Source of the DNA: a virus
IMG/VR virus record: IMGVR_UViG_3300008963_000042
Location: 1 to 21,402 of that record
Strand: one strand, 5' to 3'
DNA length: 21,402 nucleotides
Part shown: piece by piece, positions 2 through 20,283 of the stretch
Numbering within the stretch: the first letter of the stretch is position 1
Layout of the letters: every line of letters begins with the position of its first letter
Position numbers and translations under genes: made by a program
The notes under the pieces: generated by a model
Databases searched by the model: none
What the model saw: the letters and a program-made list of their open reading frames with translations, nothing else
What the model was told of the DNA's origin: nothing

Positions 2-1873
2 CCCACGGCGACCTTCGATGAGTACCAGTCATTCATCGACCAGTACACTGGCGATGGGATGGGAAGCAACTACCTTCGCGGCGGCGCGCCCAGCGAGGAA
101 GTCCTGCGTGGGCTGGCCGATCAAAACGAGAAGGTCCGCCAGGCTCAGGAAGAACAGCGCCTTCTGGAAAGTCTGCAACGCCGTGGCCAGACCGATGGCC
201 AGTTGCGGGGCACGGCTGACGACGTCTTGCTCAACATGGAAGATGACGACTTCGACAGCGCCTATGAAACATTAATCGAGCGACTTGGCGGCGAGGAAGC
301 AGAGGAGCAGTTCGGAAAGAACAGGCTTCAGTCCTACATCACGCCCAACCGACTCAACACGCTGGCCAACGAACAGCTCAGGGCCCGACTTCCCGAGATT
401 CGTGAATATGTCGACATGGTCGATAGTGAGGAGGTTGACGCAAAAGACATCGCGGAAACTTTCAACATCCGCAACGAGACTGTCCTCAATCCGATTGTCA
501 GCCGCATCCAGGAGTTGAATCGCAAGAGGCGCCAGCAGGAAGCTCAAAAAAACAGGATGGCCATCAACGATGCGCTCGATTCGGCGATTGAAAGGGGCGA
601 CCCGAATCCCGTCGAGTCCGTCAAAGAGCTGTTCCCCAGCGCTGACCACGAGTCTTTGAACGGCCTTTATCAAAATGCTCAGGAGCGATCCAATCGCCTT
701 CAGCAGCAGGAAGAAGAAAAGAGGCGCAGCCAGCGTCTTGCGCTGGTCCGGCAGTTCAAGAACGACGTTTTCATGAATGAGAACACCCCTATCGGGGCGG
801 GTATCTCGGCTGCTGTCCGGGGCGGCAATAAAGAGGAAGCGCTTCGCCTCATGCGTGACATTGCCCAGCGCGACCTAACTGAGAGTGAGTACGAGCTGGC
901 TTTCAGTGAAGGCGGTCTTGAAGCGACCTACGAGTCAATGCTTCGTGACATGCAAAGCACGCAGGATCAGCGCTACGCAGAGTACGAGCAGAAACAGGCT
1001 GCCAACTCCCGCGAGGCAGCTCAGGAATACGCTCAAGAGAATGTCGACCGGGCGTTCAACACGAATGACCAGCTCTTTAACGAGCAGGTTGCAACGCTTG
1101 CCAGCAACCTGGCCCGTCGCTTTGACTGGTCTTCAGCCGTTCAGGGCGCGTTTGAGCGCGCGATTCAGAGCAATGACATTCTTGGGCGCCTGGAAGATGG
1201 TGAAATCACACCCACCAGCGCCGTGTCTGAGATTGCCGCCGACCCGACCTTCGGTCAGGTTGCTCGCCCCGTACAAGACCGTCAGGGCGAGATCATGGAA
1301 GCGGGCAATCCGTTCCCTGCTGGAACGATGCGGGAGAACACGAAACTCCTTCGCGATGAGCTGACTTCTAACGTCGCCAGCGGTCTGGAATCTGAAGCGC
1401 AATCTGTTGAGAACGCAGAAAGTCTTGCCAGAAAGGAACAAGAGCTTGCGGTCTACCAGCGCACAATCCAGCAGGTTGAGGCCGATCTGGCCACCAAGCT
1501 GCGTCAGTTCCGTCAAAGCCGAAACATCTGGCTGAAGCCTGGCGACGGTGGCTGGAGCGAGCAGGAATTCTCGAGGCTTCAGCGTGAAGCCGAGCGAATT
1601 ATCGCTCAGGCCCGCAACCGCGCCGCAGAGCTGAAGGTGCAGATTGAAGACGAAAAGGCCGTCCAGCTTCAGTCTCGACAGGAAGAAGGTCAGGCAACTG
1701 TAGATCAGTCTGGCATCGGAGGAACCCGAAGCGGCGCTTTAAGGGGCGATACACTCGTACAGCCTCGAACGATGGGCGGACAGTCTTCACGGCGAGGGTC
1801 TGGCGACATGAATATCGACCTCACTGACACGCCTGAATCAACTTCCGGGAACCGTCGGCGAGAAGGGCGATAG
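2..1873 (+). CDS. Coiled-coil-rich phage structural protein (5'-partial)
   Basis: The reading frame is open from base 2 to a TAG at 1871-1873, and the first ATG in frame (59) has no ribosome binding site, so the true start lies left of the window. The visible part is about 623 residues, unusually rich in Gln, Glu, Arg and Ala, with long heptad-like helical stretches (for example around 700-740 and 1400-1700) and no recognisable enzyme motif. The last 60 residues are Gly/Ser/Arg-rich and look disordered. There is no signal peptide or membrane segment in what is seen. It lies 68 bp upstream of the giant polyvalent protein on the same strand, and such helical proteins often precede giant ejected proteins in podovirus-like late operons. 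An internal virion or ejection protein is therefore likely by context, but I do not recognise the family. A tail-fibre or scaffold role is the alternative. Confidence 0.8.
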   Translation, partial: PTATFDEYQSFIDQYTGDGMGSNYLRGGAPSEEVLRGLADQNEKVRQAQEEQRLLESLQRRGQTDGQLRGTADDVLLNMEDDDFDSAYETLIERLGGEEAEEQFGKNRLQSYITPNRLNTLANEQLRARLPEIREYVDMVDSEEVDAKDIAETFNIRNETVLNPIVSRIQELNRKRRQQEAQKNRMAINDALDSAIERGDPNPVESVKELFPSADHESLNGLYQNAQERSNRLQQQEEEKRRSQRLALVRQFKNDVFMNENTPIGAGISAAVRGGNKEEALRLMRDIAQRDLTESEYELAFSEGGLEATYESMLRDMQSTQDQRYAEYEQKQAANSREAAQEYAQENVDRAFNTNDQLFNEQVATLASNLARRFDWSSAVQGAFERAIQSNDILGRLEDGEITPTSAVSEIAADPTFGQVARPVQDRQGEIMEAGNPFPAGTMRENTKLLRDELTSNVASGLESEAQSVENAESLARKEQELAVYQRTIQQVEADLATKLRQFRQSRNIWLKPGDGGWSEQEFSRLQREAERIIAQARNRAAELKVQIEDEKAVQLQSRQEEGQATVDQSGIGGTRSGALRGDTLVQPRTMGGQSSRRGSGDMNIDLTDTPESTSGNRRREGR

Positions 1874-1941: not shown

Positions 1942-4900
1942 ATGGGCATTTTTGAAAACCCGCAGAGCATTGGTAACGAATACCGTGTAACGCTCGATCC
2001 CGCCGAGCGTGATGACTACACCAACAACCCTGACCCTGAAGCCATCCTCCGGGACCCACGCTTTCTTCAGGACCTCCGCGAACAGTACGGCAACAATCTC
2101 GACGACGACGATCTGATCGACAAGTTCTACAGCGATCAGATTTGGGGCGATCTCAACACGTTAAGCGCTGCCAAGGATGCTGTCGAAGCGACGACAGCAG
2201 GCGAGGCTGAACGCAGCCGCCTCCGTCGACTCCAGAAGGCTTACCGTAGCCAGCCATGGTTCTGGAATAGCGATGAGCGCAGCGCAGGCGAGACGGCAAT
2301 CGACGCTGCTGCCGCCATTTTTTCTGACCCAATCAATTTCGTCCCTGGCCTCAACGCCCTATCGAAAGCCCGGATTGCTGGCCGCACGGCTCAGGTAGCT
2401 GGCCAAAACGCACTTCGTTCGGGTATCAAGGAAGGTGCCAAGACAGGCGCCAAGTCAGAGGCGCTCATTAGTGGCGGCCAGGAAGCGGCCGTCAATACGT
2501 CTCAGCAGGTCAGGGACGTCCAGCTTGGTCTTCAGGAAGAATTCAGCACCGGGCGACTGGCAGGTGCCACTGCGTTTGGCGCTGGTATTGGCGGCGGTGT
2601 TGGTGGCCTTATTGGTGGAACGGCGGGTGCTTTTGGTGGCCGTCAGGGCGCACGTCAGGCCGATCAGTTAGCAGAACTCGGCTACACGCCTGAGCAGATC
2701 AGTACGCTGGCCCCGGAAGAAGTTGAAGCAATCATCAGCCGTGGGACAGCTTCTCGTGTAGAAGGCCAGGAAGGAACTCCGCAGGAATCAGAAAGCCAGG
2801 AAGGGCAGGCCGAGGGCGAGCAGGAAGGCGAACAGGAAGAAACGCCGGAACAGGCTATCGACCGCGAGTTCGCTGACGTAGACCGTGTCCTTGACGCAAA
2901 CATCAGCGCCTACCGAAAAGACATCGACGACTTGCAGATGAGTGGCGCAGACGAAGCCCTCATCAAAGACACACGCCAGCGCCTTCAGGCTGTTGCCCAG
3001 CTACGCGGCATGGTCGAGCGTCTCAAAAAAGAGCGCGATGAGATCGCAGCCCTTGGCGAGACGAACGACGTTCGTTCCCTGTCGCAGCGGGACCGTCGAC
3101 TTTCGCGTTTTGAAGACGACTTCTCCCGCCTTCGCGTCCTCATGGCTCAGACTGATTCTGACGAGGATGCAGATGCCATTCTCGAGCGCATCCGGGCGAT
3201 GCGTGAAGAAATGAACGCTGAGTCACCTGATGGCACGCCTGAATCAGAAACCGATTCGCCTCAGCCAGAACAGGGCGCCGATCCTGAAACGGGTTCGGGC
3301 GACGCGCCCGAGGCACCCGAGGCCCCCGAAGCCGATACTGAAGCGGCAGAGCCTGCCCAGCCAGAGGCAGAGACACAGAACGAGCCCATCCGATATGCAA
3401 GCGATGGACAGCGTGAGCGCATCATTGGCTTGCTCGAGAAAGAGGGTCTCAACGAGTCAGACCTTCAGGCGTTTCTTGCGTCCGGCCGTGTTGAGTACGG
3501 CCGCTCCGGTCGTCTGATCCAGCGATCCGAGCGTCAGATCAAGAAAGTCCTGCGCGACGTGCGCGCTGCTCGGGTTGAAGAAACTGCGGAGACGGGTGGC
3601 CAGCCAGAAGCAACACCGCAGGCCGAGGCTGCACCGGCAGAGCCAGAAGTCGATGCAGCGCCAGAGAAGAATCTGCCCGCACCATCAGACGTCAAAATTT
3701 CAACTCGCCAGCGCGGCCGCGCCCTGGCCGACGGCGTTGATTACCGCCGTCTCGATGGCAAGAGCAAGAGCAAGTCGGGCGCCGTAACCAAGGGCGTCAT
3801 TACCGAGGAGGTTCGCCGCAAGGCCCGCTCGCAGGAAGCGCAGGACGCCTATGCGGAGAAAGCTCAGGAAGAACTGTCCAGGATTATCGACGAGGTCGGC
3901 ATTCTTGAGGCGGATGATGCCGTTGTCCGCCAGTTTATCGAGATCGCCAGCCGCGATTCGAGCCGGGGTTGGGAGACCGACCCGCAGGACATGCTGGCGC
4001 TTTTCGACGAGATCAAAAAGCGCAGCGATGCGGAAGACTCAGTCGATAACGCCAGTCGGAGCAATATCGACGGTGAGACAAAGACGTTCCAGCAGAAAGT
4101 CCTTCGCCGCAAGCGAGAGATCAGGAAGAACAACCCGGACCTTTCCGACGAGGCCGCCGATACGATTGCGCGCGGTGAGATTCAGTCTGGTGAAGCGCAG
4201 GCCACTACTGGCGGCGATACGATCCGCAACACCGGGCGCCGCACCGAGGAGGCTGGCAATCTCACCCAGGCTGGCCGGACCAACACCGGCCGTATCCAGT
4301 CTTTCCTGCGCCGGGGCACCCGAATTGGCCGCGACTCAGAGTACACCGTCACTGGTGGCAATCAGGTCAGGCCAAGCGAATTTGGCTTTGAAGCGGCGCT
4401 CATCAAGGCTCGCCAGGGCAATGGAATCACGCCATTCCAGACGACGGGCCGAACAAAGGTCATGACTCGCGAGGAAGGCACGAAGAATTTCGGCAAAGGC
4501 GAGACCGCTTACGCTGACCCGATGACCGGCCGCGCTTACGAGTCACGCGAACTGGCCATGGAAGTCCGTGGTGACGGGCCGCAGAAATCCAAGGATCGGA
4601 CGCCGACCCAGGAGCAAACGCCTGAAGACACTGAAGCCAGGATTCGAGACCTGATGGCGGAGTACGCCCGGTCAGGTGACTCATCTGGCTTCATGGATGC
4701 AGTCGCCGCTATCCGTCGTGGCGAGGCGATAGACACCAAGCGGGCGAACGACAACGGGGACACACCCGAGCCGCAGGTTGCCCGCCCTGTAGACACAGAG
4801 ACCGTCGCGCCAGAAGCAATTCCGCTGACACGGGGCGACAAGCTGCTCATCGTCAGGAGCAAGACAGACCCGAGCGACGTTCGGATGATGTCTCCACGCC

Positions 4901-7900
4901 AGGCCGATGAGGGTGGAGATATTCGCCGCATCATTGGTAGCAAGGGTCCGAAGTCAGACCCGGCAAACTGGGAAGCGCGGTACGCGCCGCGCCAGTCCGC
5001 CGTCCGAGGCCGAGGCGCTCGTCAGCGTCTTTTCAATCAGCTAGAGCAGACAGACACCGGGGAAACGCCTCAGCCTGGCGGCCTCTACGAGTCGGGCGAT
5101 GCTACAGGTGCTGGCCGACCGCTCAATGTCGATGATCTCCGCGACTACAGGATCACGGATGTCACCGAAGACGAGGGGATGGCCATAAGGCTTTCTCACT
5201 CAAAATTCTCTCGAGACCCCGAGAACAAGGACTACACGCTCGCAGACTTTTACCTTGCCGCGAGAGCAACGGAGAGCAAGCGCTGGGAGCCGACTCTTGA
5301 GTTGCACAGAGAGAAGTCCGAAAGGCTTCGCATTCTCTATGAGCGCATCCAGTCTGAAGCACCGCAGGGCTTCACCCTCAACGCGACAAGCCGCGACGAG
5401 TCGATTGCTTCTGTACGCAGCCTTTTCAGTGGCCTGAACACTGAGGAGGTTCGTGCCGCCGAGGACCTGTTGACCCGCCTCGGTGGCAATCCGAACCGGG
5501 CACCTGAGTTTATTGACGGAGAAGGCAAGAATTCGCTCCGCATTTCGGGGACTCAGGATGGCAGGATCAGTGAAGCTATCCGGCTTACCCCTGACGAGAC
5601 TTCCATAACACCCAGTCTGGCAACGCTTTATCACGAAGTCGCCCATTGGGCGTACTTCAACATTCTCACGCCGAAAGACCGCGCTGACTTCTGGCGTAGC
5701 GCCGAGCGCTACTACAAGGAAAGCGGCAGCCTGGACCGGGATGCAATCGACGAAGCTGTTCCGAAGCCTGGCCGCCAGACCTTCAGAGACGAAAATGGCG
5801 GCACAAACGTCCTCCGCTCCAATTCGATGGAGTCTCCGCAGGAGCTGTTCGCCAACCAGTTTGAGCTCTGGGCGATGCGTGGCCAGGCGCCGGAGATCAT
5901 GAAAGACGAGTCTTTCTGGCGGCAGATCACGCGCTACGTGAAGGCGGTATTCGACCGCTTCTATCACGGCGCCAAGATTGATGCGGACCTTGAGCCGCTG
6001 TTCGCCAAGATTCTGCCACCTGAAGAAGCGCAGAAAGTCCGCCTTGGCGTCGACTCTCAGCCATCGTCCGAATTTGGTCGCCATATCCAGAAGCGGTATG
6101 TCGAGTTGCAGCAGCTACAGAGGGACATCGACGACGCATTCAATCGGGACAGTGCTGACGCAATCATCACCGCCCATGGCGAACTGGTCCGTTATCTCCT
6201 TTCAACTGCCCCTCGAGGCAGCACAGAGGAGCGTCCGAACACCGGCGTATTTGACCCATTCAAGCGCTACATCCGGCTCATCAATCAGCGAGTCGACGAC
6301 ATCAACGAGATCGTGTCGGGCAAGCCGTTTGCATCGGAAGATGGCGCTGGCGATTTATCAAGAACTCCGCCCGAATGGGTGGACATGGGTGCGATTGAAG
6401 TCGAGGACCCGCAGGCAGTCGCTGACATGCTCAGGGACTACTATCACAACGGCTACGCTGGCCAGTTTACTCCCGAGCGCGGTCTTCCTGCCCGCATCAA
6501 GCAGCCGGAAGGCGCGTCGGTCAGCCGTCTTGTTCGCAATCTGCAAACAGCCATGGAGGCTTCTTACCGGCGGAAAGAATCGGGAAACATGGTCCCTGGC
6601 CACCGTCCTGAAGTAACTGAGTCCGCAGGGTCCCAGGCCGAACCGCCGTCAAAGGAAGTCCGCGCTGAAAAGAAAAAACAGACTCGCAAGAAAGAGGCTG
6701 CAAGCCGCGAAGCGAGGAAGACGGCCAAGACGCCGCCTGCAAAGCGTGCATCGAGGGCAGCCGTAAAGACTGATCCGGCTGTTGCAGAGGAGTTGAAGAC
6801 CAAGTCGCTCGACGATCTTCGCTCGCTGTACATGAAGCATCGCGGCACAAAGCGCGGCGACCAGATCGCCATCCAGATGCTTCGCAAGGAAAAGGCTGCT
6901 CCGCTTCCTTCAAAAAAGGTGGCCATCACCCCAGAGATTCGGAACATGGGAGGGTCCGACCTGCAATCTGCGCTGCTTGAGGCGCTTACAGGGTCCGACT
7001 CAAATCAGATCGACCGTCTCTCGTTCGAGCTCCGTCGCCGAGAAGCCAACAAGAAGCGCAAGAAGACTGGCGAGAAGCTGATCCAGCCTGTCTTCAGCCA
7101 GACGAACCGCTCGATCCTACAGGAGCAGGCCGACGACATTGGCCTTGCCACGAATGACGCAGTCCCGCCGAGCGCCCGCGCATCGGTTCGTGAGCTGCTT
7201 TCCTACATGACGCATCGCGACCCTGAAGTCGAGCAGACGCTTCGGACGATGACGTACCGCATGGTCAATCTCATGGGCAAGGCTGCCCGTGGGACGATCC
7301 AGGACAGTAATGTCATGACCAGCAGTGACATCGCCCAGCTCGCTGGAGTCGATCCGACGAGCGTCGGCAATGCTGTATTTGCTGACATGCGGGCGCCCGA
7401 GTTCAAAACGCTTCGCCGTGACATGCGCCGCATGGCCATTGGCCTGACGAAAGGGAACGTCTCACCGTTCGACGTCATGCACGAGATCGGTCATGTCGTC
7501 GCCCGCTCCGGCATCCTTGGGGAGCGCGAGATTGATGCGATCCGCCAGAGCTATCGGTTCGCCAACGACAGCACGAAAAAGCGTGTTGAGGCCGCTTATG
7601 GCCCGAAGTACCAGAATCGGATCACGGCAACGAAGGAAGACCTGCTTGCCGAGGAGTGGTTCGCCGAGCAGTTGGCTCAGTACATGGGCGAGCGTGTTGC
7701 CAAGGGGGACATTCACCGGGCGGCAGTCGACGGCGACGTTGGCGACCTGACGCTGCGCAGCTCTTTTGGACGTGCCATTGACCGTGCCGTCGAATACGTT
7801 GCCTACGTGGTCAACGGCATGATTGGCCGGAACGACATCAAACAGCAGTTCCGGCGCCTCCTGTTCTATGGCGACATGCACGAGCGCCCGCGCCAGTCGC

Positions 7901-10900
7901 CAGTATCAATCAGCCGTATCCAGTCGCCTGCAATGTCGCCGATTGAGGCGCCTGATGCTGTTATGGACAGCATCATGTCTTCCCCGGCCGCAAGGCTTCA
8001 GAAGATCAAGGCTTACGTTGGCGACGGGCTTTCTTACGACGCGGAGTCTGACAGCTTCGTGCCGTACTACCATGGCACGCCTCGAGGCGATAAGCTGCGC
8101 CGTGACGCCAACCCTGACGCAGTCCTTCGCGTGAGCGATCAGGGCAACTTTGGCCCTGGCGTCTACCTGGCCGACAACCCGGAGGTTGCCAATCAGGTCT
8201 ATTCACGGCGCCCGACTCAGCGGGCGTTCGAGAGCCAGATCGACGAACTCGATCTTCCGCAGGAGAAGAAAAACGAGCTGGTCCTAGACGCGGCTACGCT
8301 GAATCAGGTCCGTCGCCAGATCGCCGATGGCCGCGCCAATTATGGCCAGGCCAAGGCTGAAGGCAAGCCCGACATGGTCCTCGAAACGATGCGGACCATC
8401 ATGGACGAAGCGGTCGATCAGGAGCAGGCAATCGTCAAGCGTCTTGCCGCCGCAGGCGTCGAGCCTGACCCGCTCGTCATGCCGCTCTACACGCGCGTCC
8501 GCAATCCCGCAGACTTCCGGGAGACGGCGCGCTTCGACTCCATTGATGATCCGTTGATTCGGTCGATGCTCGACTACATGAACATGGTCGAGATCATTAA
8601 CAACGACGGATACAGGGCACTTGTTCGCACTTTCAGCGACGGCCCGAAAGATGGCGCCCAGACTTATAAGGCACTCGTGAATGTCCTTGAGCGTTCCGGC
8701 CGAAGCCAGGTTCAAGCCAAGACAGAGATCAACGAGATGCTGGATGACATGGGCTATGACGGTCTTCTGGCAACGCACCGAAACAGCGTCGACACGACTG
8801 ACGCAGACGTCATGGCCAATGGAAACACCTATGAACCGTCCCAGAAGGTCTACGACGGGCTGGTTGTATTTGATTCCCGCAACGTCAAGCACATCGAGGC
8901 AGCCGAGTTTGACGCTGCGGATGAGCGCCTCTACTACCGAGACAGCGCTGGACTGCCCAAGGGCGAAGTTGGCGCCGTAGTGGACAGCATCATCAACGAG
9001 AACGTGGAGAATATCGAGTCAATCAATCCGGGCCGCTTTGGTGAGTCGCTCGAGACTCGCGGCGCCACACCTTCGCTGACCAGCGCAGTCATGTCGAAGA
9101 TGCGCGGGCGCCGTCTCGACACCAAAGAAGAACAGTCGATGCGCAAGCAGTCGCCGTTCTGGTTCCTCCAGTCTCAGTCCTCGAGGATGCGCGACCTTGG
9201 CGCACGCTGGGTTGCTGACTGGTACAAGGGTCACTTCCCGGACCTGCACAATCAGTTCGCGAAGAAGTACATGCCGATCCATCATGCGCTTCGCGCACTT
9301 CCAGACGCAGACGGAAAGGTTCGAGCTTGGGCCAGGGAGTCGACTGGCAGCATCAAACAGGAGCAGCCAAAGAGCTATGGCCGCATTGTCCGGGCGCTTC
9401 GCCGGGGCGATGGATCGAGGCAGGAAAAAGCACTGTCCAGTCAGGAGCGCGAGGTCTACCAGAGCATCCGCCGTTACATGGTCAATGAGCGCAATGAAAT
9501 GATGCGCCTTGGCATTCACGTCGGCGACCGTGGCCCCAACTACATGCCGCAGGTCTGGCGCCCTGAGCGCATCCGCAAGAACCGCGACCAGTTTCTCGCT
9601 GGCATGGAGCAGTATTACTTCATGGAGAAGGCTTCTCGTGGTCAGGAGGCATCGAGTGACGAAGCAAAGGACTTCGCCCTTGGCATTTACGAGCGCCTTG
9701 CCGGGAATGAGGCAGACGGGACATTCGTCCCGGTGCGGGGCGGTTCCCGCAGCCCTCGCTTCGAGAATGTCGACTACAGCCGTGTTGTCGAGCTCGAAAA
9801 GCACCCGGAAGCCATGGAGATGCTGGAAGGCTTCCTCGAAGACGACATCGAGTCGCTTCTCGTTAAATACATGGAAGGGAGCACTCGAAAAATCAGTCAT
9901 GCCGAGAAGTTTGGCGTGAACAATCATGGCTTCTACGACTACCTGATGACCGCAGAGCAGGGCGCTGACGGTATTGCTCGTCTTCTATCCAACAACAAGG
10001 TGTTCCGGCGCGACACCCGCGCAATCACGGAAGACGGGTATGTCGTCGAGCCAACAGTGACAGAAACTGCGCCCATGCCTTTCGAGGGCGACCAGGGTCG
10101 TGCGCGTTCTTTCGTAAAAGAGCTGGTGGCAGCACACCAGGAAAAGGGCACGGCCGCTGCCAGGCAGATGCTTGAGGAGATCGCCCCGAAGACGACAGAA
10201 GGTCTTCGCTCGGAGACCTATGCGCGCCGCGTTGATTCCATCCTTGGGGCGCTGGACGACTTCAAAGGCAAGCCGTCTGACCTCGAACAGAAGGACTTTG
10301 CTTTCCTCGAGTCGTCGATGGACATTGCGATGAAAAAGCCGCTGCTCGGTACGGGCGGTGAAGGCGTCCGCAACTTCTCGAAGTTCATGCGCTCTTTCAA
10401 CAACATCAGCCTGCTTGGCTTCACAACGCTCACTTCCCTCGGTGACGTTGCCCTGCCGATGATCCGTTCAGGGTCGATGCAGAGCTGGTCGAAGGCGGTG
10501 AAACAGTATGCCCAGGACCCCGACTACCGCCGCATGCTCGAGAACGTCGGCGTTGCCATGGAGAGCATTGTCCATGAGCGGATGATCTACATGTACGGGG
10601 CTGTCGATAACAAGCTGTCGAACAGCTTCTTCAACGCCACCATGCTGACGCCCTGGACAGACATGAACCGTCGGATCGCTGGCGCTGTTGGCCATGAGAC
10701 CTTCAAGACCATGCAGACCAAGGCGGTCAAGAACCACAAGGCCAACCAGCCAATCGCGAATCAGAACCGCGCTTACAAGGAGGCGGCCCGGTTCCTGAAT
10801 CGCTATGGCCTGGGTGAGTATCTGCCAACCGGGTCAAAGGCGAGGGAGAGTCTTTCCAACCGCAAGCTGCTCGAGACAGACGACCAGGTACGCCTTGGCA

Positions 10901-11604
10901 TCCTCAAGTTTGCAGACGACGCGATCTTCGTGCCCAACCCGAACGACGTGCCGATGTGGGCGCAGACGCCATGGGGCGCGTTGATCTTCCAGCTCAAGTC
11001 TTTCCCGCTGATGATGGCCCGAATGGGACGTGATCTTGTGAAAGAGGCGAGGGATGGCAATATCCGGCCGCTGCTCTACCTCGCAACGCTTGGCCCTGCA
11101 TTCGGGTCCGGGGCGCTTGCCACGAAAGACATCGTGCAGATGCGTGGCGGCGATGACGGCCGGGATGCTGAGCTTCGTGAGCGAAACCTGACTAACGTCC
11201 TCGAATCCATGGGGTACAACGCTGACATTCATGGTTCCAAGGATGAGTTCCTCGGCTGGTATGTCGACGGCATGATGCAGATGGGCGGGCTCGGCCTGAT
11301 CGGCGACGTGATCTACAACGTCGCAACACAAGTCGACAACGGAAGCTATGGCGAAGTCAGGGTGACTTCAACATTCGCTGGACCGTCATACGGCGCTGCG
11401 ATAAGCGGAGTGAAGATCGGTGCTGGCCTTCTCGATAGCAACGACGACAGTAACGCCAAGGAGCGCGCCGCCGCTCGAGAGGCAGCTACACGGATTCCTG
11501 TTCTTGGCGGACTCAGGTCTGTCAGAGAAGGGATTGTCGACAACGTGGCAGGAGAGTCGTCTCGCGACAGCGGTGGGGGCGGGTTTACCAGTTCTCTGCA
11601 ATAA
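1942..11604 (+). CDS. Giant polyvalent virion protein: two zinc-peptidase motifs, ADP-ribosyltransferase-like domain, polyvalent-type C-terminus
   Basis: The protein has 3220 residues, with an ATG start preceded by GGAGA at 1928-1932. Domains in order: an N-terminal region with a DPINFVPGLN segment; a glycine-zipper hydrophobic stretch (about 207-233); acidic low-complexity linkers (about 270-310 and 425-485); a first zincin motif H1231-E-V-A-H1235 with E1301 as probable third zinc ligand; a Lys/Arg-rich linker (about 1570-1720); a second zincin motif H1847-E-I-G-H1851 with E1905 as probable third ligand; an ADP-ribosyltransferase-like domain (about 2030-2320) with HGT at 2044-2046, FGPGVYLAD from 2070 and a closing VVFD at 2308-2311; and a long helical C-terminal region (about 2400-3200) with two hydrophobic stretches, resembling the 'large polyvalent protein-associated' domains of phages and mobile elements. 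By family knowledge such proteins are carried in the capsid and injected, where they can act on host or defence proteins. Which domains are active is unknown. I saw no N4-type virion RNA polymerase motifs. Confidence 0.85.
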   Translation: MGIFENPQSIGNEYRVTLDPAERDDYTNNPDPEAILRDPRFLQDLREQYGNNLDDDDLIDKFYSDQIWGDLNTLSAAKDAVEATTAGEAERSRLRRLQKAYRSQPWFWNSDERSAGETAIDAAAAIFSDPINFVPGLNALSKARIAGRTAQVAGQNALRSGIKEGAKTGAKSEALISGGQEAAVNTSQQVRDVQLGLQEEFSTGRLAGATAFGAGIGGGVGGLIGGTAGAFGGRQGARQADQLAELGYTPEQISTLAPEEVEAIISRGTASRVEGQEGTPQESESQEGQAEGEQEGEQEETPEQAIDREFADVDRVLDANISAYRKDIDDLQMSGADEALIKDTRQRLQAVAQLRGMVERLKKERDEIAALGETNDVRSLSQRDRRLSRFEDDFSRLRVLMAQTDSDEDADAILERIRAMREEMNAESPDGTPESETDSPQPEQGADPETGSGDAPEAPEAPEADTEAAEPAQPEAETQNEPIRYASDGQRERIIGLLEKEGLNESDLQAFLASGRVEYGRSGRLIQRSERQIKKVLRDVRAARVEETAETGGQPEATPQAEAAPAEPEVDAAPEKNLPAPSDVKISTRQRGRALADGVDYRRLDGKSKSKSGAVTKGVITEEVRRKARSQEAQDAYAEKAQEELSRIIDEVGILEADDAVVRQFIEIASRDSSRGWETDPQDMLALFDEIKKRSDAEDSVDNASRSNIDGETKTFQQKVLRRKREIRKNNPDLSDEAADTIARGEIQSGEAQATTGGDTIRNTGRRTEEAGNLTQAGRTNTGRIQSFLRRGTRIGRDSEYTVTGGNQVRPSEFGFEAALIKARQGNGITPFQTTGRTKVMTREEGTKNFGKGETAYADPMTGRAYESRELAMEVRGDGPQKSKDRTPTQEQTPEDTEARIRDLMAEYARSGDSSGFMDAVAAIRRGEAIDTKRANDNGDTPEPQVARPVDTETVAPEAIPLTRGDKLLIVRSKTDPSDVRMMSPRQADEGGDIRRIIGSKGPKSDPANWEARYAPRQSAVRGRGARQRLFNQLEQTDTGETPQPGGLYESGDATGAGRPLNVDDLRDYRITDVTEDEGMAIRLSHSKFSRDPENKDYTLADFYLAARATESKRWEPTLELHREKSERLRILYERIQSEAPQGFTLNATSRDESIASVRSLFSGLNTEEVRAAEDLLTRLGGNPNRAPEFIDGEGKNSLRISGTQDGRISEAIRLTPDETSITPSLATLYHEVAHWAYFNILTPKDRADFWRSAERYYKESGSLDRDAIDEAVPKPGRQTFRDENGGTNVLRSNSMESPQELFANQFELWAMRGQAPEIMKDESFWRQITRYVKAVFDRFYHGAKIDADLEPLFAKILPPEEAQKVRLGVDSQPSSEFGRHIQKRYVELQQLQRDIDDAFNRDSADAIITAHGELVRYLLSTAPRGSTEERPNTGVFDPFKRYIRLINQRVDDINEIVSGKPFASEDGAGDLSRTPPEWVDMGAIEVEDPQAVADMLRDYYHNGYAGQFTPERGLPARIKQPEGASVSRLVRNLQTAMEASYRRKESGNMVPGHRPEVTESAGSQAEPPSKEVRAEKKKQTRKKEAASREARKTAKTPPAKRASRAAVKTDPAVAEELKTKSLDDLRSLYMKHRGTKRGDQIAIQMLRKEKAAPLPSKKVAITPEIRNMGGSDLQSALLEALTGSDSNQIDRLSFELRRREANKKRKKTGEKLIQPVFSQTNRSILQEQADDIGLATNDAVPPSARASVRELLSYMTHRDPEVEQTLRTMTYRMVNLMGKAARGTIQDSNVMTSSDIAQLAGVDPTSVGNAVFADMRAPEFKTLRRDMRRMAIGLTKGNVSPFDVMHEIGHVVARSGILGEREIDAIRQSYRFANDSTKKRVEAAYGPKYQNRITATKEDLLAEEWFAEQLAQYMGERVAKGDIHRAAVDGDVGDLTLRSSFGRAIDRAVEYVAYVVNGMIGRNDIKQQFRRLLFYGDMHERPRQSPVSISRIQSPAMSPIEAPDAVMDSIMSSPAARLQKIKAYVGDGLSYDAESDSFVPYYHGTPRGDKLRRDANPDAVLRVSDQGNFGPGVYLADNPEVANQVYSRRPTQRAFESQIDELDLPQEKKNELVLDAATLNQVRRQIADGRANYGQAKAEGKPDMVLETMRTIMDEAVDQEQAIVKRLAAAGVEPDPLVMPLYTRVRNPADFRETARFDSIDDPLIRSMLDYMNMVEIINNDGYRALVRTFSDGPKDGAQTYKALVNVLERSGRSQVQAKTEINEMLDDMGYDGLLATHRNSVDTTDADVMANGNTYEPSQKVYDGLVVFDSRNVKHIEAAEFDAADERLYYRDSAGLPKGEVGAVVDSIINENVENIESINPGRFGESLETRGATPSLTSAVMSKMRGRRLDTKEEQSMRKQSPFWFLQSQSSRMRDLGARWVADWYKGHFPDLHNQFAKKYMPIHHALRALPDADGKVRAWARESTGSIKQEQPKSYGRIVRALRRGDGSRQEKALSSQEREVYQSIRRYMVNERNEMMRLGIHVGDRGPNYMPQVWRPERIRKNRDQFLAGMEQYYFMEKASRGQEASSDEAKDFALGIYERLAGNEADGTFVPVRGGSRSPRFENVDYSRVVELEKHPEAMEMLEGFLEDDIESLLVKYMEGSTRKISHAEKFGVNNHGFYDYLMTAEQGADGIARLLSNNKVFRRDTRAITEDGYVVEPTVTETAPMPFEGDQGRARSFVKELVAAHQEKGTAAARQMLEEIAPKTTEGLRSETYARRVDSILGALDDFKGKPSDLEQKDFAFLESSMDIAMKKPLLGTGGEGVRNFSKFMRSFNNISLLGFTTLTSLGDVALPMIRSGSMQSWSKAVKQYAQDPDYRRMLENVGVAMESIVHERMIYMYGAVDNKLSNSFFNATMLTPWTDMNRRIAGAVGHETFKTMQTKAVKNHKANQPIANQNRAYKEAARFLNRYGLGEYLPTGSKARESLSNRKLLETDDQVRLGILKFADDAIFVPNPNDVPMWAQTPWGALIFQLKSFPLMMARMGRDLVKEARDGNIRPLLYLATLGPAFGSGALATKDIVQMRGGDDGRDAELRERNLTNVLESMGYNADIHGSKDEFLGWYVDGMMQMGGLGLIGDVIYNVATQVDNGSYGEVRVTSTFAGPSYGAAISGVKIGAGLLDSNDDSNAKERAAAREAATRIPVLGGLRSVREGIVDNVAGESSRDSGGGGFTSSLQ

Positions 11605-11627: not shown

Positions 11628-11942
11628 GATCGCTCCAAACTCGATAGTCAAACGAGTCGCTTCGGCGCTTGCCTCAAGATGCCGGAGCTGCTGGAGCCGC
11701 TCTGAAATCTGGTCTCTTGTAAGCCTACGCTTGTCGCGAGCGCGAACGTAGCTGTCTTTCCATTCCTGCGTTTTCCTGTACGACTCTGGCATACGGTCCA
11801 GCTCATTGAGCCGGTCAGTGACTGAGTCGATGATGTTGTTCATGTCGTCGATCTCGCGCTGAACATTCGCAGCCTTGATCTTCACGTCATAGAACGAGTC
11901 CAGCAATTCATCCATGGTCATGATGACAACCTCTGTGCTCAT
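11616..11942 (-). CDS. Small coiled-coil protein, unknown function
   Basis: This 108-residue, charged, almost wholly helical protein has Leu/Ile heptads (residues about 25-50 and 70-95) typical of a coiled coil. It has no Cys cluster, signal peptide or catalytic motif. Its ATG overlaps the TGA of the upstream nuclease gene as ATGA, so it is translationally coupled and is the last gene of the recombination operon. An internal Met (MTMDELL) is a possible later start. Position suggests an accessory role in replication or recombination. The function is not recognised. Confidence 0.75.
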   Translation of the reverse strand: MSTEVVIMTMDELLDSFYDVKIKAANVQREIDDMNNIIDSVTDRLNELDRMPESYRKTQEWKDSYVRARDKRRLTRDQISERLQQLRHLEASAEATRLTIEFGAIEGG

Positions 11943-12748
11943 GATTGTTTCGGGATCGGCGCGTAACGCTGGTAGTCACTGCATGGAGCGGTCGCCCTTG
12001 TGTCATGTTTGTGGCAGTGCCACCCGCCGTCGGCCAAAGGCGAGGCGTACTGACAAGTTGAGCAAGCAACTGGGACTTCGCGGTCGCCCCAACAGACACC
12101 TCGCTTAAAGCACCCACGACAGCGCCAATCGGTCTCGTCTTCTGATATTTTCCGTGCCTGTCCAGAAAGGACACGGTTTACTTTCTCCTCGAGAAAGCCA
12201 TATTCAAGATCATCGTAGGCGACGATCTCTGCGTGGTACTCGCTTGTGTTCTTGTTCACTGCGATGAGAAATGTCTTTTTCATGCCAGACATGCCCATCA
12301 TCAGTGTTACCTGAGCGTGGTACTGGGGGTGACTGATCTTGACGCCGTTCTTCCTGAATTTCTCAAAGCTGGCGTCATTCATCGACTTCACCTCGAGGAC
12401 ATGGACCTCTCCATTGATCTCGATATGGCCATCCATGTGGGATTTGATATGGCCGCCTAGCGCCTCGTAGGCATGCTGCTTGCCAGTCAGCCCATCAACT
12501 TCGAAAACATTCACCCTGGCCTTTTTCTTGAGATCGCTAACGACCATGTCTTCAAGAACGTGGCCAAGCTGGAAGATGCGTTTCAGCTTTGGCGCCGGGG
12601 GATCATTAGGAAAGCCTCGGAGATTAAATGCCAGTACCGCCTCGCACGAGTTGCCGACAATGCTGGCGCCGATGTACGCCCTCGACTTTCCTTCCGATTC
12701 ACGCTCGTATCCATCGTCGATTGCTTCGATGATTTCTTGTGCGTCCAC
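11939..12748 (-). CDS. Cas4/RecB-like PD-(D/E)XK exonuclease with Fe-S-type cysteines
   Basis: A 269-residue protein of the PD-(D/E)XK nuclease superfamily. Visible motifs are G62..E66 (motif I), D106 (motif II, SHMDGHIE), E119-V-K121 (motif III, VLEVKS) and a QYHAQ segment at 142-146 matching the RecB-family QxxxY motif region. C35 near the N-terminus and C210, C213 and C219 (CRGC..C) after the core match the four-cysteine arrangement that holds a 4Fe-4S cluster in Cas4, AddB and Dna2 nucleases. A second C-terminal cluster (C229, C232, C245, H247, C256) looks like an extra zinc ribbon. The start is GTG (12748-12746) with GGAG 8 nt upstream. It follows the SSB-like gene after a 50-bp gap holding overlapping hairpins. 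The expected role is 5' or 3' end resection feeding Sak4-mediated annealing or strand exchange. The fold is near certain; exact polarity is unknown. Confidence 0.85.
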   Translation of the reverse strand: MDAQEIIEAIDDGYERESEGKSRAYIGASIVGNSCEAVLAFNLRGFPNDPPAPKLKRIFQLGHVLEDMVVSDLKKKARVNVFEVDGLTGKQHAYEALGGHIKSHMDGHIEINGEVHVLEVKSMNDASFEKFRKNGVKISHPQYHAQVTLMMGMSGMKKTFLIAVNKNTSEYHAEIVAYDDLEYGFLEEKVNRVLSGQARKISEDETDWRCRGCFKRGVCWGDREVPVACSTCQYASPLADGGWHCHKHDTRATAPCSDYQRYAPIPKQS

Positions 12749-12787
12749 TGAGGATTCTCCTCAAGGGGAGCGCGATGCTCCCCTTGA
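12749..12787 (-). promoter_or_regulatory. Overlapping hairpins covering the nuclease ribosome binding site
   Basis: Two inverted repeats share three bases. One is an 11-bp perfect stem (12761-12771 with 12777-12787, loop 12772-12776). The other is a 6-bp stem (12749-12754 with 12758-12763, loop 12755-12757) that takes in the AGGAG ribosome binding site of the nuclease gene, whose GTG is at 12748. The two cannot both form fully, so the larger hairpin would free the binding site. The large hairpin could also act as a partial terminator after the SSB-like gene, although no T-run follows it. Confidence 0.45.
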
Positions 12788-12798
12788 ACGGTCAGATG

Positions 12799-13278
12799 TT
12801 AAAACGGGATTCGGTCATCCGGGTCCTGAGTGCTGGGCGCGCTGGCGCCAGCAGATTCCTGACCATCGCCTACAGGCATGAACCGCTTAATCTCCGCGTT
12901 CTGACGCTCGACACCATTCCGGTCACGCCACGGCTTGCCCATCCCGACGTAAACCTTGCAGGTCAAGCCAACCATCGACGTCACGTCGCCGGGTTTGTCC
13001 GGGTTGGGATGGCCTGAAGACACAAGAAACGTCTTGAGCTGGCGGAGGCCAATCTCCTGAGCCTGGCTGTTGGAGTGGTGGATGTTGAAGTTATGGCGGA
13101 TGTTGCCATCGTCAGCCGAAAACTCAGCGACCAGTTTCTTGTTGGAGGTATCGCCAACAGATTCAACCTTCGCTTCAGTGCATTTGACGATGTACTCGCC
13201 GGGTTCAAGGCGGCGATACCCCTTGTCTTCCTCGACGCCGGAAAGATCGAGCGATGGAAAGCCGTTCCAGTCAGACAT
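12799..13278 (-). CDS. DUF669-type single-strand DNA-binding-like protein with SSB-like acidic tip
   Basis: This 159-residue protein resembles the phage DUF669 family, which is commonly encoded next to Sak4-type ATPases and behaves as an SSB-like partner. Visible features are an N-terminal LEPGEYIVKCTEAKVE strand pattern, a central beta-rich core with RHNFNIHHSN, a VTSMVGLTCKVYVGMGKP segment, and a flexible Ser/Ala/Gly linker ending in DPDDRIPF. That ending closely matches the acidic C-terminal tip (DDDIPF) that bacterial SSB uses to recruit partner proteins. Its ATG overlaps the TAA of the ATPase gene as TAATG, so the two are co-translated. The assignment to ssDNA binding is inference from family, neighbour and tail; the family assignment itself is likely. 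Confidence 0.8.
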   Translation of the reverse strand: MSDWNGFPSLDLSGVEEDKGYRRLEPGEYIVKCTEAKVESVGDTSNKKLVAEFSADDGNIRHNFNIHHSNSQAQEIGLRQLKTFLVSSGHPNPDKPGDVTSMVGLTCKVYVGMGKPWRDRNGVERQNAEIKRFMPVGDGQESAGASAPSTQDPDDRIPF

Positions 13279-14069
13279 TACTGCGTCTCCTTGTCATCGG
13301 TAGTGTTTGTGCTCGTCTGCTCGTCCTCTCGAGCCATACGGGCGAATAGTTCGGTGATGTCCTGAACCTGCTCATACGGTTTCAGTCGGTTGCGTGGATC
13401 GCGAACCTTCCCGTGCCAGCCTGAAACCTCGTCTGTAACGACAAAGCGCTTGACCTTCGGGATGCCTTCGCTGGTCTTTTCAGTGACACGAACGCCGCAG
13501 AGAACGTGATCGAAAAGCGCCGGGATCTGCTTGGCTACTGCCTGGCCCTTAACGAGCGGCCAGTATTGAGTCACGTCGTTGGCGTCCTTCTCCTCTTTCG
13601 CCAGACAGGTCACATAGACGTGCATGTCCATGTCGCGAATCCACTTGAGGGCGCCAATCATCATGCGGTTGTATTCACCCCACATGGCGAATGCGTTGGT
13701 CACGTCCTTGAATTCGTGCTCGAGGTGCTCGACCAACCGTTCGGAGAGCTCCGTCAGTGAGTCAATCGCAATCCACTTGTAGCCAGCTTCCCGAAATTCT
13801 TCGGAGTTGAGCATCTTGATAATGCCCCGGAACGAGAACACGCCATTGTCCGGGTCATGCTTCCCGTCCCATGAGGTGAACGGCACATAGTCGATGTCGA
13901 CGTCTTCCACGGACTTCAAACCCGACTCGCCGGAAAGGATGAGACCCTTTCCGTACCGGGCCTGGTAGTAGCGGCACTGGAATGTCTTGCCGTAGCCGTG
14001 ATGCGCGTATAGCAACACCTTGGTTGGGCCATGATGCTGGATATGGCTAGTCTGCATCGTTTTGAACAT
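13278..14069 (-). CDS. Sak4-type RecA-like ATPase (phage recombinase)
   Basis: A 263-residue P-loop ATPase. Walker A is HHGYGKT (G25, G27, K28, T29). Walker B is KWIAIDS with D103. A VYVTCLAKEE strand follows in the position of the RecA-fold sensor strand. Length and layout fit the AAA_24/Sak4 group of short RecA-like phage proteins that promote single-strand annealing together with an SSB-like partner, here the next gene. The C-terminal 20 residues are Thr/Asp/Glu-rich and disordered. The ATG at 14069 has AAGGTG upstream; an in-frame ATG at 14057 has no clear ribosome binding site. The gene overlaps the preceding gene by 23 bp. The main uncertainty is whether it anneals strands or acts as an ATPase loader. 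Confidence 0.87.
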   Translation of the reverse strand: MFKTMQTSHIQHHGPTKVLLYAHHGYGKTFQCRYYQARYGKGLILSGESGLKSVEDVDIDYVPFTSWDGKHDPDNGVFSFRGIIKMLNSEEFREAGYKWIAIDSLTELSERLVEHLEHEFKDVTNAFAMWGEYNRMMIGALKWIRDMDMHVYVTCLAKEEKDANDVTQYWPLVKGQAVAKQIPALFDHVLCGVRVTEKTSEGIPKVKRFVVTDEVSGWHGKVRDPRNRLKPYEQVQDITELFARMAREDEQTSTNTTDDKETQ

Positions 14070-14520
14070 TGGGCTTCACCTTGACCTTGGGTTTCTGGAG
14101 ATTTCTGGTGAGGGCTGGCTTGAGACGCTCCTGTTCTTCAGCGTCCAGCTTTTTGAATGCGCGCTTGTCGACATGAAGCGTCCGCCTCACGTACGAGGGC
14201 CATTGCCCGGTATCAGAACCGAGGATTTCGCGAAGCACCCCCTGATTCCATGTCCAGCGCTCCTCGCGAACTACCGAGACATCTGCTGCTTCGGTGTTCC
14301 AAGTGTGCTCATCGGCGTCTTCGGGCGCATAGTGCGCAATCTCACTCGTGAGGAAGCCCATGCGTTCAACAATCGCCGCTCGGTGCTTCTCAAGTTCTGC
14401 ATATTCCTGAGCCAAGCGTTCAATACGGGACTCGATTGAGTCGTCTGACTCGCTTTCAGCAGGCTCTTTGCTTCGGCTAGCGGATGAGAAAAGTCGCCAC
14501 GGGTCGGTTTCATCAACCAT
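14047..14520 (-). CDS. Coiled-coil protein, first gene of the recombination operon
   Basis: The protein has 157 residues. The N-terminus is acidic and disordered, followed by a helical coiled coil (about residues 28-65) and a C-terminal part with a Trp-rich patch (WTWNQG) and a Lys-rich tail (KPKVKVKP). The start is well supported: AAGGAGG lies 4 nt upstream of the ATG. It is the first gene downstream of the divergent control region and overlaps the Sak4-like gene. I do not recognise the family. Its place suggests an accessory recombination or host-takeover protein. Confidence 0.8.
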   Translation of the reverse strand: MVDETDPWRLFSSASRSKEPAESESDDSIESRIERLAQEYAELEKHRAAIVERMGFLTSEIAHYAPEDADEHTWNTEAADVSVVREERWTWNQGVLREILGSDTGQWPSYVRRTLHVDKRAFKKLDAEEQERLKPALTRNLQKPKVKVKPNVQNDAD

Positions 14521-14538
14521 CGTTCCTCCTTAGTTGAG

Positions 14539-14581
14539 GGTGTCAGTGAGGTGTCATTGGGTGTATCGTACACCATACACC
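14539..14581. promoter_or_regulatory. Operator cluster of GGTGT repeats in divergent control region
   Basis: Three direct repeats on the + strand, GGTGTCA (14539), GGTGTCA (14550) and GGTGTAT (14560), are spaced 11 and 10 bp apart, about one helical turn. Two inverted copies follow: TACACC (14569-14574), which forms a perfect 6-3-6 palindrome with GGTGTA at 14560-14565, and ATACACC (14575-14581). The cluster lies between the recombination operon (-) and the HTH regulator gene (+), where operators of a Cro/CI-like protein are expected. Confidence 0.65.
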
Positions 14582-14592
14582 TAGAGACGCAA
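14565..14592 (-). promoter_or_regulatory. Possible promoter for the recombination operon
   Basis: On the minus strand, TTGCGT (14592-14587) is followed after 16 bp by TACGAT (14570-14565), a moderate sigma70-like match. The spacer is filled with the GGTGTA repeats of the operator cluster, so a bound repressor would block it. The match is imperfect and remains a prediction. Confidence 0.35.
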
Positions 14593-14610
14593 CCCGTTCA
14601 GGAGCGAGTG

Positions 14611-14832
14611 GTGGAATACCGAATCAACATCGAAGCATTGGTCGAGGACCTGGGCGGTGCTTCACATCTGGCCAAGTCAATCGGCGTCCCACGGACAGCT
14701 CCTTATGGCTGGATCAGACGTAAGTACATTTCCGGCCGGGTCCTCGAGCAAATCAAGACCGCCTATCCACAGGTAGATATTGACGCTTACTTTGAGGTGA
14801 CAAATGACAAGCAAGCTAGACGCAGCGCATGA
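14611..14832 (+). CDS. Small Cro/YdaS-like HTH transcriptional regulator
   Basis: This 73-residue protein has a GTG start at 14611 with AGGAG 6 nt upstream. An upstream GTG at 14551 would begin inside the operator cluster and has no binding site, so it is rejected. Residues about 9-45 read as a helix-turn-helix: GGASHLAKSIGV is the first helix and turn, and RTAPYGWIRR is the recognition helix, as in Cro/YdaS-type phage regulators. The small size, the place at the divergent region and the adjoining GGTGT repeats make autoregulation and control of the opposite operon likely. Its 3' end overlaps the prim-pol gene by 29 bp. It could repress (Cro-like) or activate (CII-like, which binds direct repeats one turn apart); the sequence does not decide. 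Confidence 0.8.
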   Translation: MEYRINIEALVEDLGGASHLAKSIGVPRTAPYGWIRRKYISGRVLEQIKTAYPQVDIDAYFEVTNDKQARRSA

Positions 14833-16702: not shown

Positions 16703-16946
16703 CTTCTTTGAGATCAATGATGGCAACGTCGGCGCCGAAGTAGCGCCGACAGTCATCGTAAAAGGCGGCAATATCCGGGTACTGCTCTCGATTCCGCTGC
16801 CTTCGAACCGCCTCTGCGTCTGACATTTCAGGCTCTTCAGGTAGAGGCGGTTTATCTTCCTCCGCAACCGGCTTCATGAGCGGCTCAGCGGTCTCTTTGC
16901 TTGCTTTCCACTGCCGGTAACGCTCAGCTTTTTCTTCTGGCTTCAA
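16680..16946 (-). CDS. Small acidic protein downstream of RuvC, unknown function
   Basis: An 88-residue reading frame that starts at TTG (16946-16944), overlapping the TGA of the RuvC-like gene as TTGA. The same frame is open further upstream, but that part lies inside the RuvC coding sequence and is rejected. Translated, it has a Lys/Glu-rich N-terminus, a Pro/Glu-rich middle (KPPLPEEPEM) and a C-terminus with YPDIAAFYDDCRRYFG. An ATG at 16826 (MSDAEAV) is an alternative start. It overlaps the prim-pol 3' end by 23 bp. Family not recognised. Confidence 0.6.
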   Translation of the reverse strand: MKPEEKAERYRQWKASKETAEPLMKPVAEEDKPPLPEEPEMSDAEAVRRQRNREQYPDIAAFYDDCRRYFGADVAIIDLKEVKPPANP

Positions 16947-17419
16947 AACGAATACCCCATCCCGGCCAGCGCGATGAATATGGCGTCCGCGACTGCTTGG
17001 CCTTTGCCTTTCTTCCTCAGTACATCGACATCCGGGTAGCGCAACGCTGCTTTGGAGCGGGGAGCGTCCTTGTCGCTGCCCACGAAAGAGAACTTTTTCT
17101 TCCAGGACTGAGGAGTCACATGAGTGATCGGTATGCCCATTGCAGCGACGCACCCTTCGGCCGCGCCAGCCGAGTGGCCAAAAGAGAACATGGAGCTGAC
17201 GCCCTGTCCGGGCATTGCCCCAACTTTCTCGATGAAAGCGCCAGTGATGTCTTCCTGCTCACGTAGAAAGGCGGCGAGGGAAGGGACGTCGACGCGGTTC
17301 GATTTGCCGACGACGGTTTTGGGGCAAAGGCAGTAGTCGATGAATCCAGCCGACTGGTCCATGACAACGATGGCGCCGGACATGCCCGGATCAACGCCGA
17401 TGTAGCGGGGCTCGCTCAT
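16943..17419 (-). CDS. RuvC-like Holliday junction resolvase
   Basis: A 158-residue protein of RuvC length with the RNase H-like fold signatures: D10 in YIGVDPGMSG, E64 in AFIEKVGAMPG, and a C-terminal catalytic acid D145 in QAVADAIFIALAG. The middle motif SSMFSFGHSAGAAEG is characteristic of phage and bacterial RuvC proteins. It would cleave four-way junctions and branched DNA arising in replication and recombination, and may debranch DNA before packaging. The ATG at 17419 has GAGAAA upstream. It is first in a two-gene minus-strand unit preceded by a long structured leader (17437-17569). Assignment is secure at family level; substrate preference is unknown. Confidence 0.92.
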   Translation of the reverse strand: MSEPRYIGVDPGMSGAIVVMDQSAGFIDYCLCPKTVVGKSNRVDVPSLAAFLREQEDITGAFIEKVGAMPGQGVSSMFSFGHSAGAAEGCVAAMGIPITHVTPQSWKKKFSFVGSDKDAPRSKAALRYPDVDVLRKKGKGQAVADAIFIALAGMGYSF

Positions 17420-20016: not shown

Positions 20017-20283
20017 CTACATGCTCTCAGCCTCGCCTGCTAACGCCGCATAGGCAACGTCATCCACGTAGTCATCTTCACGATACTCGCCCTGCACACT
20101 CCTGGCCTTTTTCAGCAGACTCATGAACTGCCAGCCCTGAGTCTCCGTCAGGCTCGTCCCATACAGCGCATTGAACGCCTCAACACACCGCCTCATGCTC
20201 CGCTCTCCATCAGGCGAGTCCCTCTGCGCGGCCCTGTCCACAAGCTCATCCTTAGCCTTGTCCAGAAACCCCTCAACACGCAT
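20017..20283 (-). CDS. DUF6378-like phage protein
   Basis: An 88-residue helical protein starting at ATG 20283, which overlaps the TGA of the dCTP deaminase gene as TGATG. Upstream GTG and TTG codons in frame are less likely. AAGGGGG lies a suitable distance upstream. The ending DDYVDDVAYAALAGE and the middle TETQGWQFMSLLKKAR match the pattern of small phage proteins annotated DUF6378. These are all-helical with acidic residues in the last helix, which recalls MazG-like folds, but no pyrophosphatase activity can be claimed. Pairing with a dCTP deaminase would suit a nucleotide-pool role. Confidence 0.72.
   Translation of the reverse strand: MRVEGFLDKAKDELVDRAAQRDSPDGERSMRRCVEAFNALYGTSLTETQGWQFMSLLKKARSVQGEYREDDYVDDVAYAALAGEAESM

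What the first reader, a model, noticed from the sequence alone, without database searches (positions are those of the whole stretch)
5632..8946. Two zinc-peptidase motifs and an ADP-ribosyltransferase-like domain in one 3220-residue virion protein
The sequence shows HEVAH with a downstream E (residues 1231-1301), HEIGH with a downstream E (1847-1905) and an HGT...FGPGVYLAD...VVFD set (2044-2311) in one frame. Phage polyvalent proteins are known to be injected and to modify host targets. Carrying two separate zincins plus an ART suggests several host or defence targets, or self-processing into several effectors after ejection. The acidic and basic low-complexity linkers between domains are natural cleavage or unfolding points for passage through a tail.
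Basis: partly seen in the sequence, partly recalled or inferred. Interest (0 to 1): 0.65.

Follow-up and report, generated by a model that had tools for sequence, protein, structure and literature searches.

The report
Giant phage ejection protein, twin zincins
A marine phage makes one 3,220-residue protein, probably carried inside its head and pushed into the bacterium, that fuses a DNA-ejection scaffold to two protein-cutting (zincin) motifs and an ADP-ribosylating domain; across its relatives either cutter can be lost but never both, which suggests that the two back each other up in one needed job rather than attacking two targets.

Summary
All named motifs lie in one 3,220-aa frame (nt 1942-11604) at the stated residues, and two HExxH motifs are far beyond chance (P about 3e-4). 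The window is one record of the CRP-810-type phage family; hundreds of viral contigs encode relatives, nearly always as one ORF of 2,917-4,059 aa in the order N module, zincin 1 (Z1), Z2, ART, C domain. The C domain resembles T7 gp16-type internal virion proteins. The ART is confirmed through relatives (Pfam ART-PolyVal in 27 of 42). Z1 is predicted as a lethal-factor-like zincin. Z2 matches Z1 by profile but is predicted all-helical, so its zincin fold is unproven.

Main new result: among 87 non-redundant proteins, 33 keep both HExxH motifs, 45 Z1 only, 9 Z2 only, none lacks both. Z2 state changed at least 7 times on the tree, Z1 once. This argues against two zincins with separate targets and favours one shared metal-dependent step, most likely processing of the giant protein itself, with the ART as injected effector. 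Virion location, cleavage and ART activity are inferred. It is a polyvalent protein (a known kind) with a new architecture.

The parts
1942..11604 (+). giant ORF, 3,220 aa: N module, Z1, Z2, ART, C domain
1999..2721 (+). N module, residues 20-260, ends in a Gly/Ala-rich stretch; the equivalent stretch in CRP-810 (gp36) is annotated internal virion protein D; a separate gene in loci L039 and L042
2725..2871 (+). acidic low-complexity linker, residues 262-310
3199..3396 (+). acidic low-complexity linker, residues 420-485
3559..3711 (+). acidic low-complexity linker, residues 540-590
5314..6162 (+). Z1 domain, residues 1125-1407, lethal-factor-like zincin fold
5632..5646 (+). Z1 HEVAH, residues 1231-1235
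5842..5844 (+). Z1 third ligand E1301
6619..6777 (+). basic low-complexity linker, residues 1560-1612
7120..7911 (+). Z2 domain, residues 1727-1990, all-helical in the model
7480..7494 (+). Z2 HEIGH, residues 1847-1851, degenerate in many relatives
7654..7656 (+). Z2 candidate third ligand E1905
7990..8964 (+). ART domain, residues 2017-2341 (ART-PolyVal type, with a helical insert)
8071..8073 (+). ART H2044
8164..8166 (+). ART Y2075
8854..8856 (+). D2305, candidate third ART residue (assignment inferred)
9034..11571 (+). C domain, residues 2365-3210, T7 gp16-like internal virion protein; most conserved patch 3001-3030
2..1873 (+). upstream gene (5' end cut by the contig), homologue of CRP-810 gp37, the gene before the giant gene there

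Best explanation
This is the giant ejection (internal virion) protein of a CRP-810-type phage, built as a polyvalent protein. The N and C parts are the T7 gp16-like scaffold that leaves the head with the DNA and reaches the bacterial cytoplasm. The middle carries the cargo: two HExxH domains and an ADP-ribosyltransferase. At least one HExxH domain must stay alive; the two are interchangeable for a single metal-dependent step, most likely cutting the giant protein itself (before or after ejection) in the low-complexity linkers, so that scaffold and cargo parts separate. The ART then modifies a host macromolecule early in infection. Shown by computation: architecture, homologies, reciprocal loss of active sites. 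Inferred: virion location, cleavage and its site, ART activity and target.
For: One ORF with N-Z1-Z2-ART-C order across the family; 110 closed single ORFs, some from overlapping loci, median 3,236 aa. ART: Pfam ART-PolyVal in 27 of 42 members, best 1.3e-9; best viral fold hits are large-polyvalent and ART-PolyVal proteins, E 2.8e-16. Z1: model pLDDT 82 with the zincin order of helix, three strands and two ligand helices; the first 14 PDB hits are all lethal-factor or Certhrax entries, best E 8e-3. Z1 against Z2: hhalign probability 92%, E 6.6e-7, aligning both HExxH and Glu. C domain: PHROG virion structural protein in 4 of 14 members (best 5.4e-10) and 'internal virion protein with endolysin domain' in 2; the QLKSF patch aligns with T7 gp16 QFKSF. 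Twin zincins: 33 both, 45 Z1 only, 9 Z2 only, 0 neither in 87 proteins; in loci sampled only through the C domain 16/19/9/0, Fisher p 0.006. Ligand residues of a lost Z1 decay together (HAQK, HSQQ, SSER). Phages KPP25 and phiA008 carry one HExxH plus the same C domain without detectable Z2 or ART. The N module is a separate gene in L039 and L042. Literature: polyvalent zincins were proposed to be autoprocessing (PMC5512222).
Against: Z1 was lost only once on the tree, so the reciprocity rests on one Z1 event and about 7 Z2 changes, and the Fisher test ignores relatedness. The N4 vRNAP with a similar motif is described as packaged uncut (PMC5512222). No conserved cleavage site was identified. 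Z2 is modelled without a beta-sheet, so it may be only a metal-binding helical domain. The T7 gp16 match is weak on its own (E 0.0044, probability 8%).
Confidence: 0.5

Rival explanations
1. The two zincins are effectors that cleave different host or defence proteins.
For: Polyvalent zincins are thought to include effectors (PMC5512222). Z1 resembles toxin-type zincins.
Against: Separate targets would not predict that loss of one site is always paired with retention of the other. Effectors aimed at particular hosts are usually patchily distributed, but Z1 and Z2 regions are present in nearly all members.
Confidence: 0.15
2. The surviving zincin processes another virion component (for example the product of the upstream gene or a scaffold), or a host envelope protein during ejection, not the giant protein itself.
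For: The giant gene follows a conserved gene of the internal virion block, and reciprocal loss fits any single shared substrate.
Against: No specific evidence for such a substrate; the P1 and N4 precedents concern the protein's own chain (PMC5512222).
Confidence: 0.2
3. The HExxH sites are structural metal sites that fold or stabilise the ejection protein, without peptidase activity.
For: Z2 is all-helical in the model; N4 vRNAP keeps an HExxH domain in its C1 subdomain, and no cleavage by it is described in the passages read (PMC12633501).
Against: Z1 keeps the general-base Glu of HExxH as well as the metal ligands in every member with an intact site and models as a zincin fold. A structural site would not need that Glu.
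Confidence: 0.15

Closest known systems
Polyvalent proteins (Iyer et al. 2017, PMC5512222), including zincin MPTase and ART-PolyVal (PF18760) domains
   Same: Very large phage protein joining unrelated enzymatic domains; zincin plus ART fusion; ART assigned to ART-PolyVal through relatives.
   Different: Joined to a T7 gp16-like ejection scaffold rather than to an RNA polymerase or ArdC-N; twin HExxH domains with reciprocal active-site loss.
Roseobacter phage CRP-810 gp34/gp35/gp36 (PMC11288001)
   Same: The same protein at 52% identity over Z1-ART and 60% over C, same neighbours.
   Different: In the deposited genome the gene is broken into three ORFs by a one-base shift and a perfect 31-bp tandem duplication; the paper's text does not mention a peptidase or ART.
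N4-type virion RNA polymerase (about 3,500 aa; PMC12633501)
   Same: Giant ejection protein with domains on linkers and an HExxH domain; the Roseovarius phage RPP1 version also has an HGT ART-like motif and two HExxH motifs.
   Different: No RNA polymerase here; the Z1 profile matches N4 only over the HExxH helix, and the N, Z1, ART and C profiles do not match RPP1.
T7 gp16, internal virion protein D
   Same: C-terminal patch and PHROG 342 matches; position in the internal virion gene block.
   Different: 2.4 times longer; zincin and ART cargo; no N-terminal transglycosylase detected in the window protein.
KPP25 ORF088 and phiA008 gene0066
   Same: C domain (HMM E 8e-20 and 3e-28) with one HExxH, Z1-type in phiA008 (1.4e-8) and weakly so in KPP25 (0.0045); KPP25 product annotated as structural protein.
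   Different: Shorter (1,825 aa read for KPP25, cut by the record start; 2,050 aa for phiA008), without detectable Z2 and ART.

Membership tests
Polyvalent protein (phage type) | several unrelated enzymatic domains in one very large polypeptide of a mobile element | tested here: met
   Z1 zincin plus ART-PolyVal in one 3,220-aa ORF
Polyvalent protein (phage type) | delivered with the DNA into the host cell | not testable with these tools
   only indirect: gp16-like C domain
Zincin metallopeptidase, Z1 | HExxH plus downstream Glu ligand | tested here: met
   79 of 79 members of the first sample with all four columns present (a sample chosen partly by this motif); 36 of 44 loci of the scan through the C domain, the other 8 being the Z1-lost clade
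Zincin metallopeptidase, Z1 | three-stranded sheet with N-terminal helix and two ligand helices | tested here: met
   model; top PDB hits all lethal-factor type, though E only 8e-3
Zincin metallopeptidase, Z2 | HExxH plus downstream Glu ligand | tested here: met
   HEIGH 1847 and E1905 in the window; HExxH lost in 45 of 87 proteins
Zincin metallopeptidase, Z2 | zincin beta-sheet | tested here: inconclusive
   the model is all-helical over residues 1727-1976, yet the profile matches Z1
ADP-ribosyltransferase (ART-PolyVal) | sequence family PF18760 | tested here: met
   27 of 42 members, best 1.3e-9; the window's own ART gives no direct Pfam hit
ADP-ribosyltransferase (ART-PolyVal) | catalytic H-Y-E/D residues | tested here: inconclusive
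   H and Y in 63 of 87; third position D/E in 39 of those 63; window has D2305, assigned from alignment and model only
T7 gp16-like ejection protein | homology to the gp16 C domain | tested here: inconclusive
   PHROG 342 at 1.6e-5 in 2 of 14 members; direct hhalign weak but on the conserved patch
T7 gp16-like ejection protein | present in the virion and ejected | not testable with these tools
   needs virion proteomics
N4-type virion RNA polymerase | single-subunit RNA polymerase domain | tested here: not met
   no RNA polymerase domain in Pfam, PHROGs or NCBIfam scans

The most novel reading that the evidence does not exclude
The giant protein is a self-cutting polyprotein: a duplicated zincin pair that must keep at least one live copy cuts the ejection scaffold free from an ART effector during or after passage through the tail, so the phage delivers a scaffold and a toxin-like enzyme as one chain and separates them inside the cell.
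Probability: 0.3. Interest if true: 0.75.

Novelty: new variant of a known kind. Interest (0 to 1): 0.52.

Why it matters
Why phages put proteases inside giant ejection proteins is an open question. This family offers natural single knock-outs of each of two protease sites, in a lineage with an isolated phage (CRP-810) and a cultured marine host. That makes the self-processing idea for polyvalent proteins directly testable, and it points to an ART delivered by widespread ocean phages.

Tried and rejected
Z1 seemed 100% conserved in the first 80 loci, but those loci had been picked with Z1 active-site patterns. Rescanning through the C domain removed that bias and uncovered the clade that lost Z1. 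The three-ORF form in CRP-810 was considered as natural splitting and rejected: the breaks are a one-base shift and a perfect 31-bp tandem duplication. The three-ORF locus L035/L107/L197 is one contig with overlapping ORFs and was not used as evidence for splitting. PDB profile searches with ART, Z2 and C alignments gave only chance-level or coiled-coil hits. Direct similarity to the N4-type protein of RPP1 was tested and not found for N, Z1, ART or C. Whole-protein Pfam, NCBIfam and PADLOC scans of the window protein found nothing useful. The PDB fold search with the Z2+ART model had no hit under E 0.3; tankyrase and PARP4 ART domains appear only weakly. The paired-lineage test of reciprocity had only one usable pair, so it could not be decisive.

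Full report
Observation. The window is an entire IMG/VR record of 21,402 bases. It holds one ORF of 3,220 aa at 1942-11604 (+). By composition 0.025 HExxH motifs are expected; 20,000 shuffles gave two or more in 0.03%.

Identity of the phage. The closest isolated relative is Roseobacter phage CRP-810 (52% identity over Z1-ART, 60% over the C domain), type member of a globally distributed marine phage family described in PMC11288001. The replication genes of the window are shared with it and with the viral contigs. The CRP-810 homologue is annotated as three ORFs, the first called internal virion protein D. The breaks are a one-base shift and a perfect 31-bp tandem duplication, and intact one-ORF relatives are the rule: 110 closed ORFs spanning N to C (some from overlapping loci), median 3,236 aa, range 2,917-4,059. 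Only the clade of L039 and L042 has the N module as a separate gene upstream.

Architecture. Five modules recur in order: N (20-260), Z1 (1125-1407), Z2 (1727-1990), ART (2017-2341), C (2365-3210). The C domain is the most conserved part. It matches PHROG 6958 (virion structural protein, best 5.4e-10) and PHROG 342 (internal virion protein with endolysin domain, best 1.6e-5) in relatives, and its QLKSF patch aligns with QFKSF of T7 gp16, weakly (E 0.0044). Proteins of KPP25 (annotated structural protein) and phiA008 share the C domain and one HExxH, but not Z2 or ART. This suggests, without proving it, that one zincin on an ejection scaffold is the older state.

Domains. ART: 27 of 42 members hit ART-PolyVal, best 1.3e-9, and the modelled region's best viral fold matches are large-polyvalent and ART-PolyVal proteins. 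H2044 and Y2075 are kept in 63 of 87 non-redundant proteins; the candidate third residue (D2305 in the window) is D or E in 39 of those 63. Z1: the model (pLDDT 82) has the zincin order of elements and its top PDB hits are all of the lethal-factor and Certhrax type, at E 8e-3. Z2: the profile aligns with Z1, with HExxH on HExxH and Glu on Glu (probability 92%, E 6.6e-7), but the model is all-helical, so the zincin fold of Z2 is not established.

Reciprocal loss. In loci found through Z1 patterns, Z1 was always intact and Z2 often dead. Because that sample was chosen by the Z1 site, I rescanned with C-domain alignments only. This uncovered a clade whose Z1 is dead (HAQK, HSQQ, SSER at the four ligand/base positions), and all of its members keep Z2. 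In 87 non-redundant proteins with a complete centre, 33 have both, 45 Z1 only, 9 Z2 only, none neither. In the C-sampled subset the counts are 16, 19, 9 and 0 (Fisher p 0.006, uncorrected for kinship). On a C-domain tree Z1 state changes once (support 98) and Z2 state at least 7 times; the Z1-dead clade groups with proteins that have both, next to a clade that lost Z2. Motif state was read from HExxH at the right distance from the C domain. The pattern is what redundancy for one needed function predicts, with the caveat that the Z1 loss is one event.

Mechanism. Known ejection proteins leave the head and, for gp16, the C part is placed in the cytoplasm (PMC8954989). Polyvalent zincins have been proposed to process their own chains, with P1 DdrB cut before packaging and N4 vRNAP packaged uncut (PMC5512222). 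I therefore think the twin HExxH domains serve one proteolytic step, most likely on the giant protein's own linkers, separating scaffold and cargo. Shown: architecture, homologies, loss pattern. Inferred: virion location, cleavage, activity, target.

Against the known. The protein belongs to the polyvalent kind, for which zincin plus ART fusions and multiple zincins were reported (PMC5512222: about 36% of the proteins have one to five zincins and about 8% more than one). It is not an N4-type vRNAP: no polymerase domain and no match to RPP1 for N, Z1, ART or C. What I have not found described is the zincin pair with reciprocal active-site loss on a gp16-like scaffold, conserved through a globally distributed phage family; the literature search behind that statement was short.

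Noticed in passing
CRP-810 OR671924.1, locus L003 near 16062-16114 and 22066-22142: The giant gene of the deposited CRP-810 genome is broken by a perfect 31-bp tandem duplication and a one-base shift; intact relatives exist. Sequencing or assembly error, or recent mutation.
   Followed up: partly
L039 4516-6162 and 7670-16360; L042 1139-2911 and 7823-16435: The N module is a separate gene, with several other genes between it and the zincin-ART-C gene.
   Followed up: partly
L236 and L240, about 602 residues before the C domain: A further HExxH motif (HELKH) near the ART region in two relatives with Z2 lost.
   Followed up: no
window 18380-18943: A 2OG-Fe(II) oxygenase gene (Pfam 4.7e-11), with a relative in only two of the fetched loci (CRP-810 and L042).
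   Followed up: no
window 11939-17419: Replication block: YqaJ/Cas4-like exonuclease, Sak4-like ATPase, Prim-Pol/AAA_25 primase-helicase and RuvC-like resolvase.
   Followed up: no
window 20283-20828: dCTP deaminase gene (Pfam 1.4e-27).
   Followed up: no
L060, L083 and L070 groups: In deep clades the ART region keeps its place but has lost the catalytic His, and Z2 is dead there too, while Z1 stays intact.
   Followed up: partly
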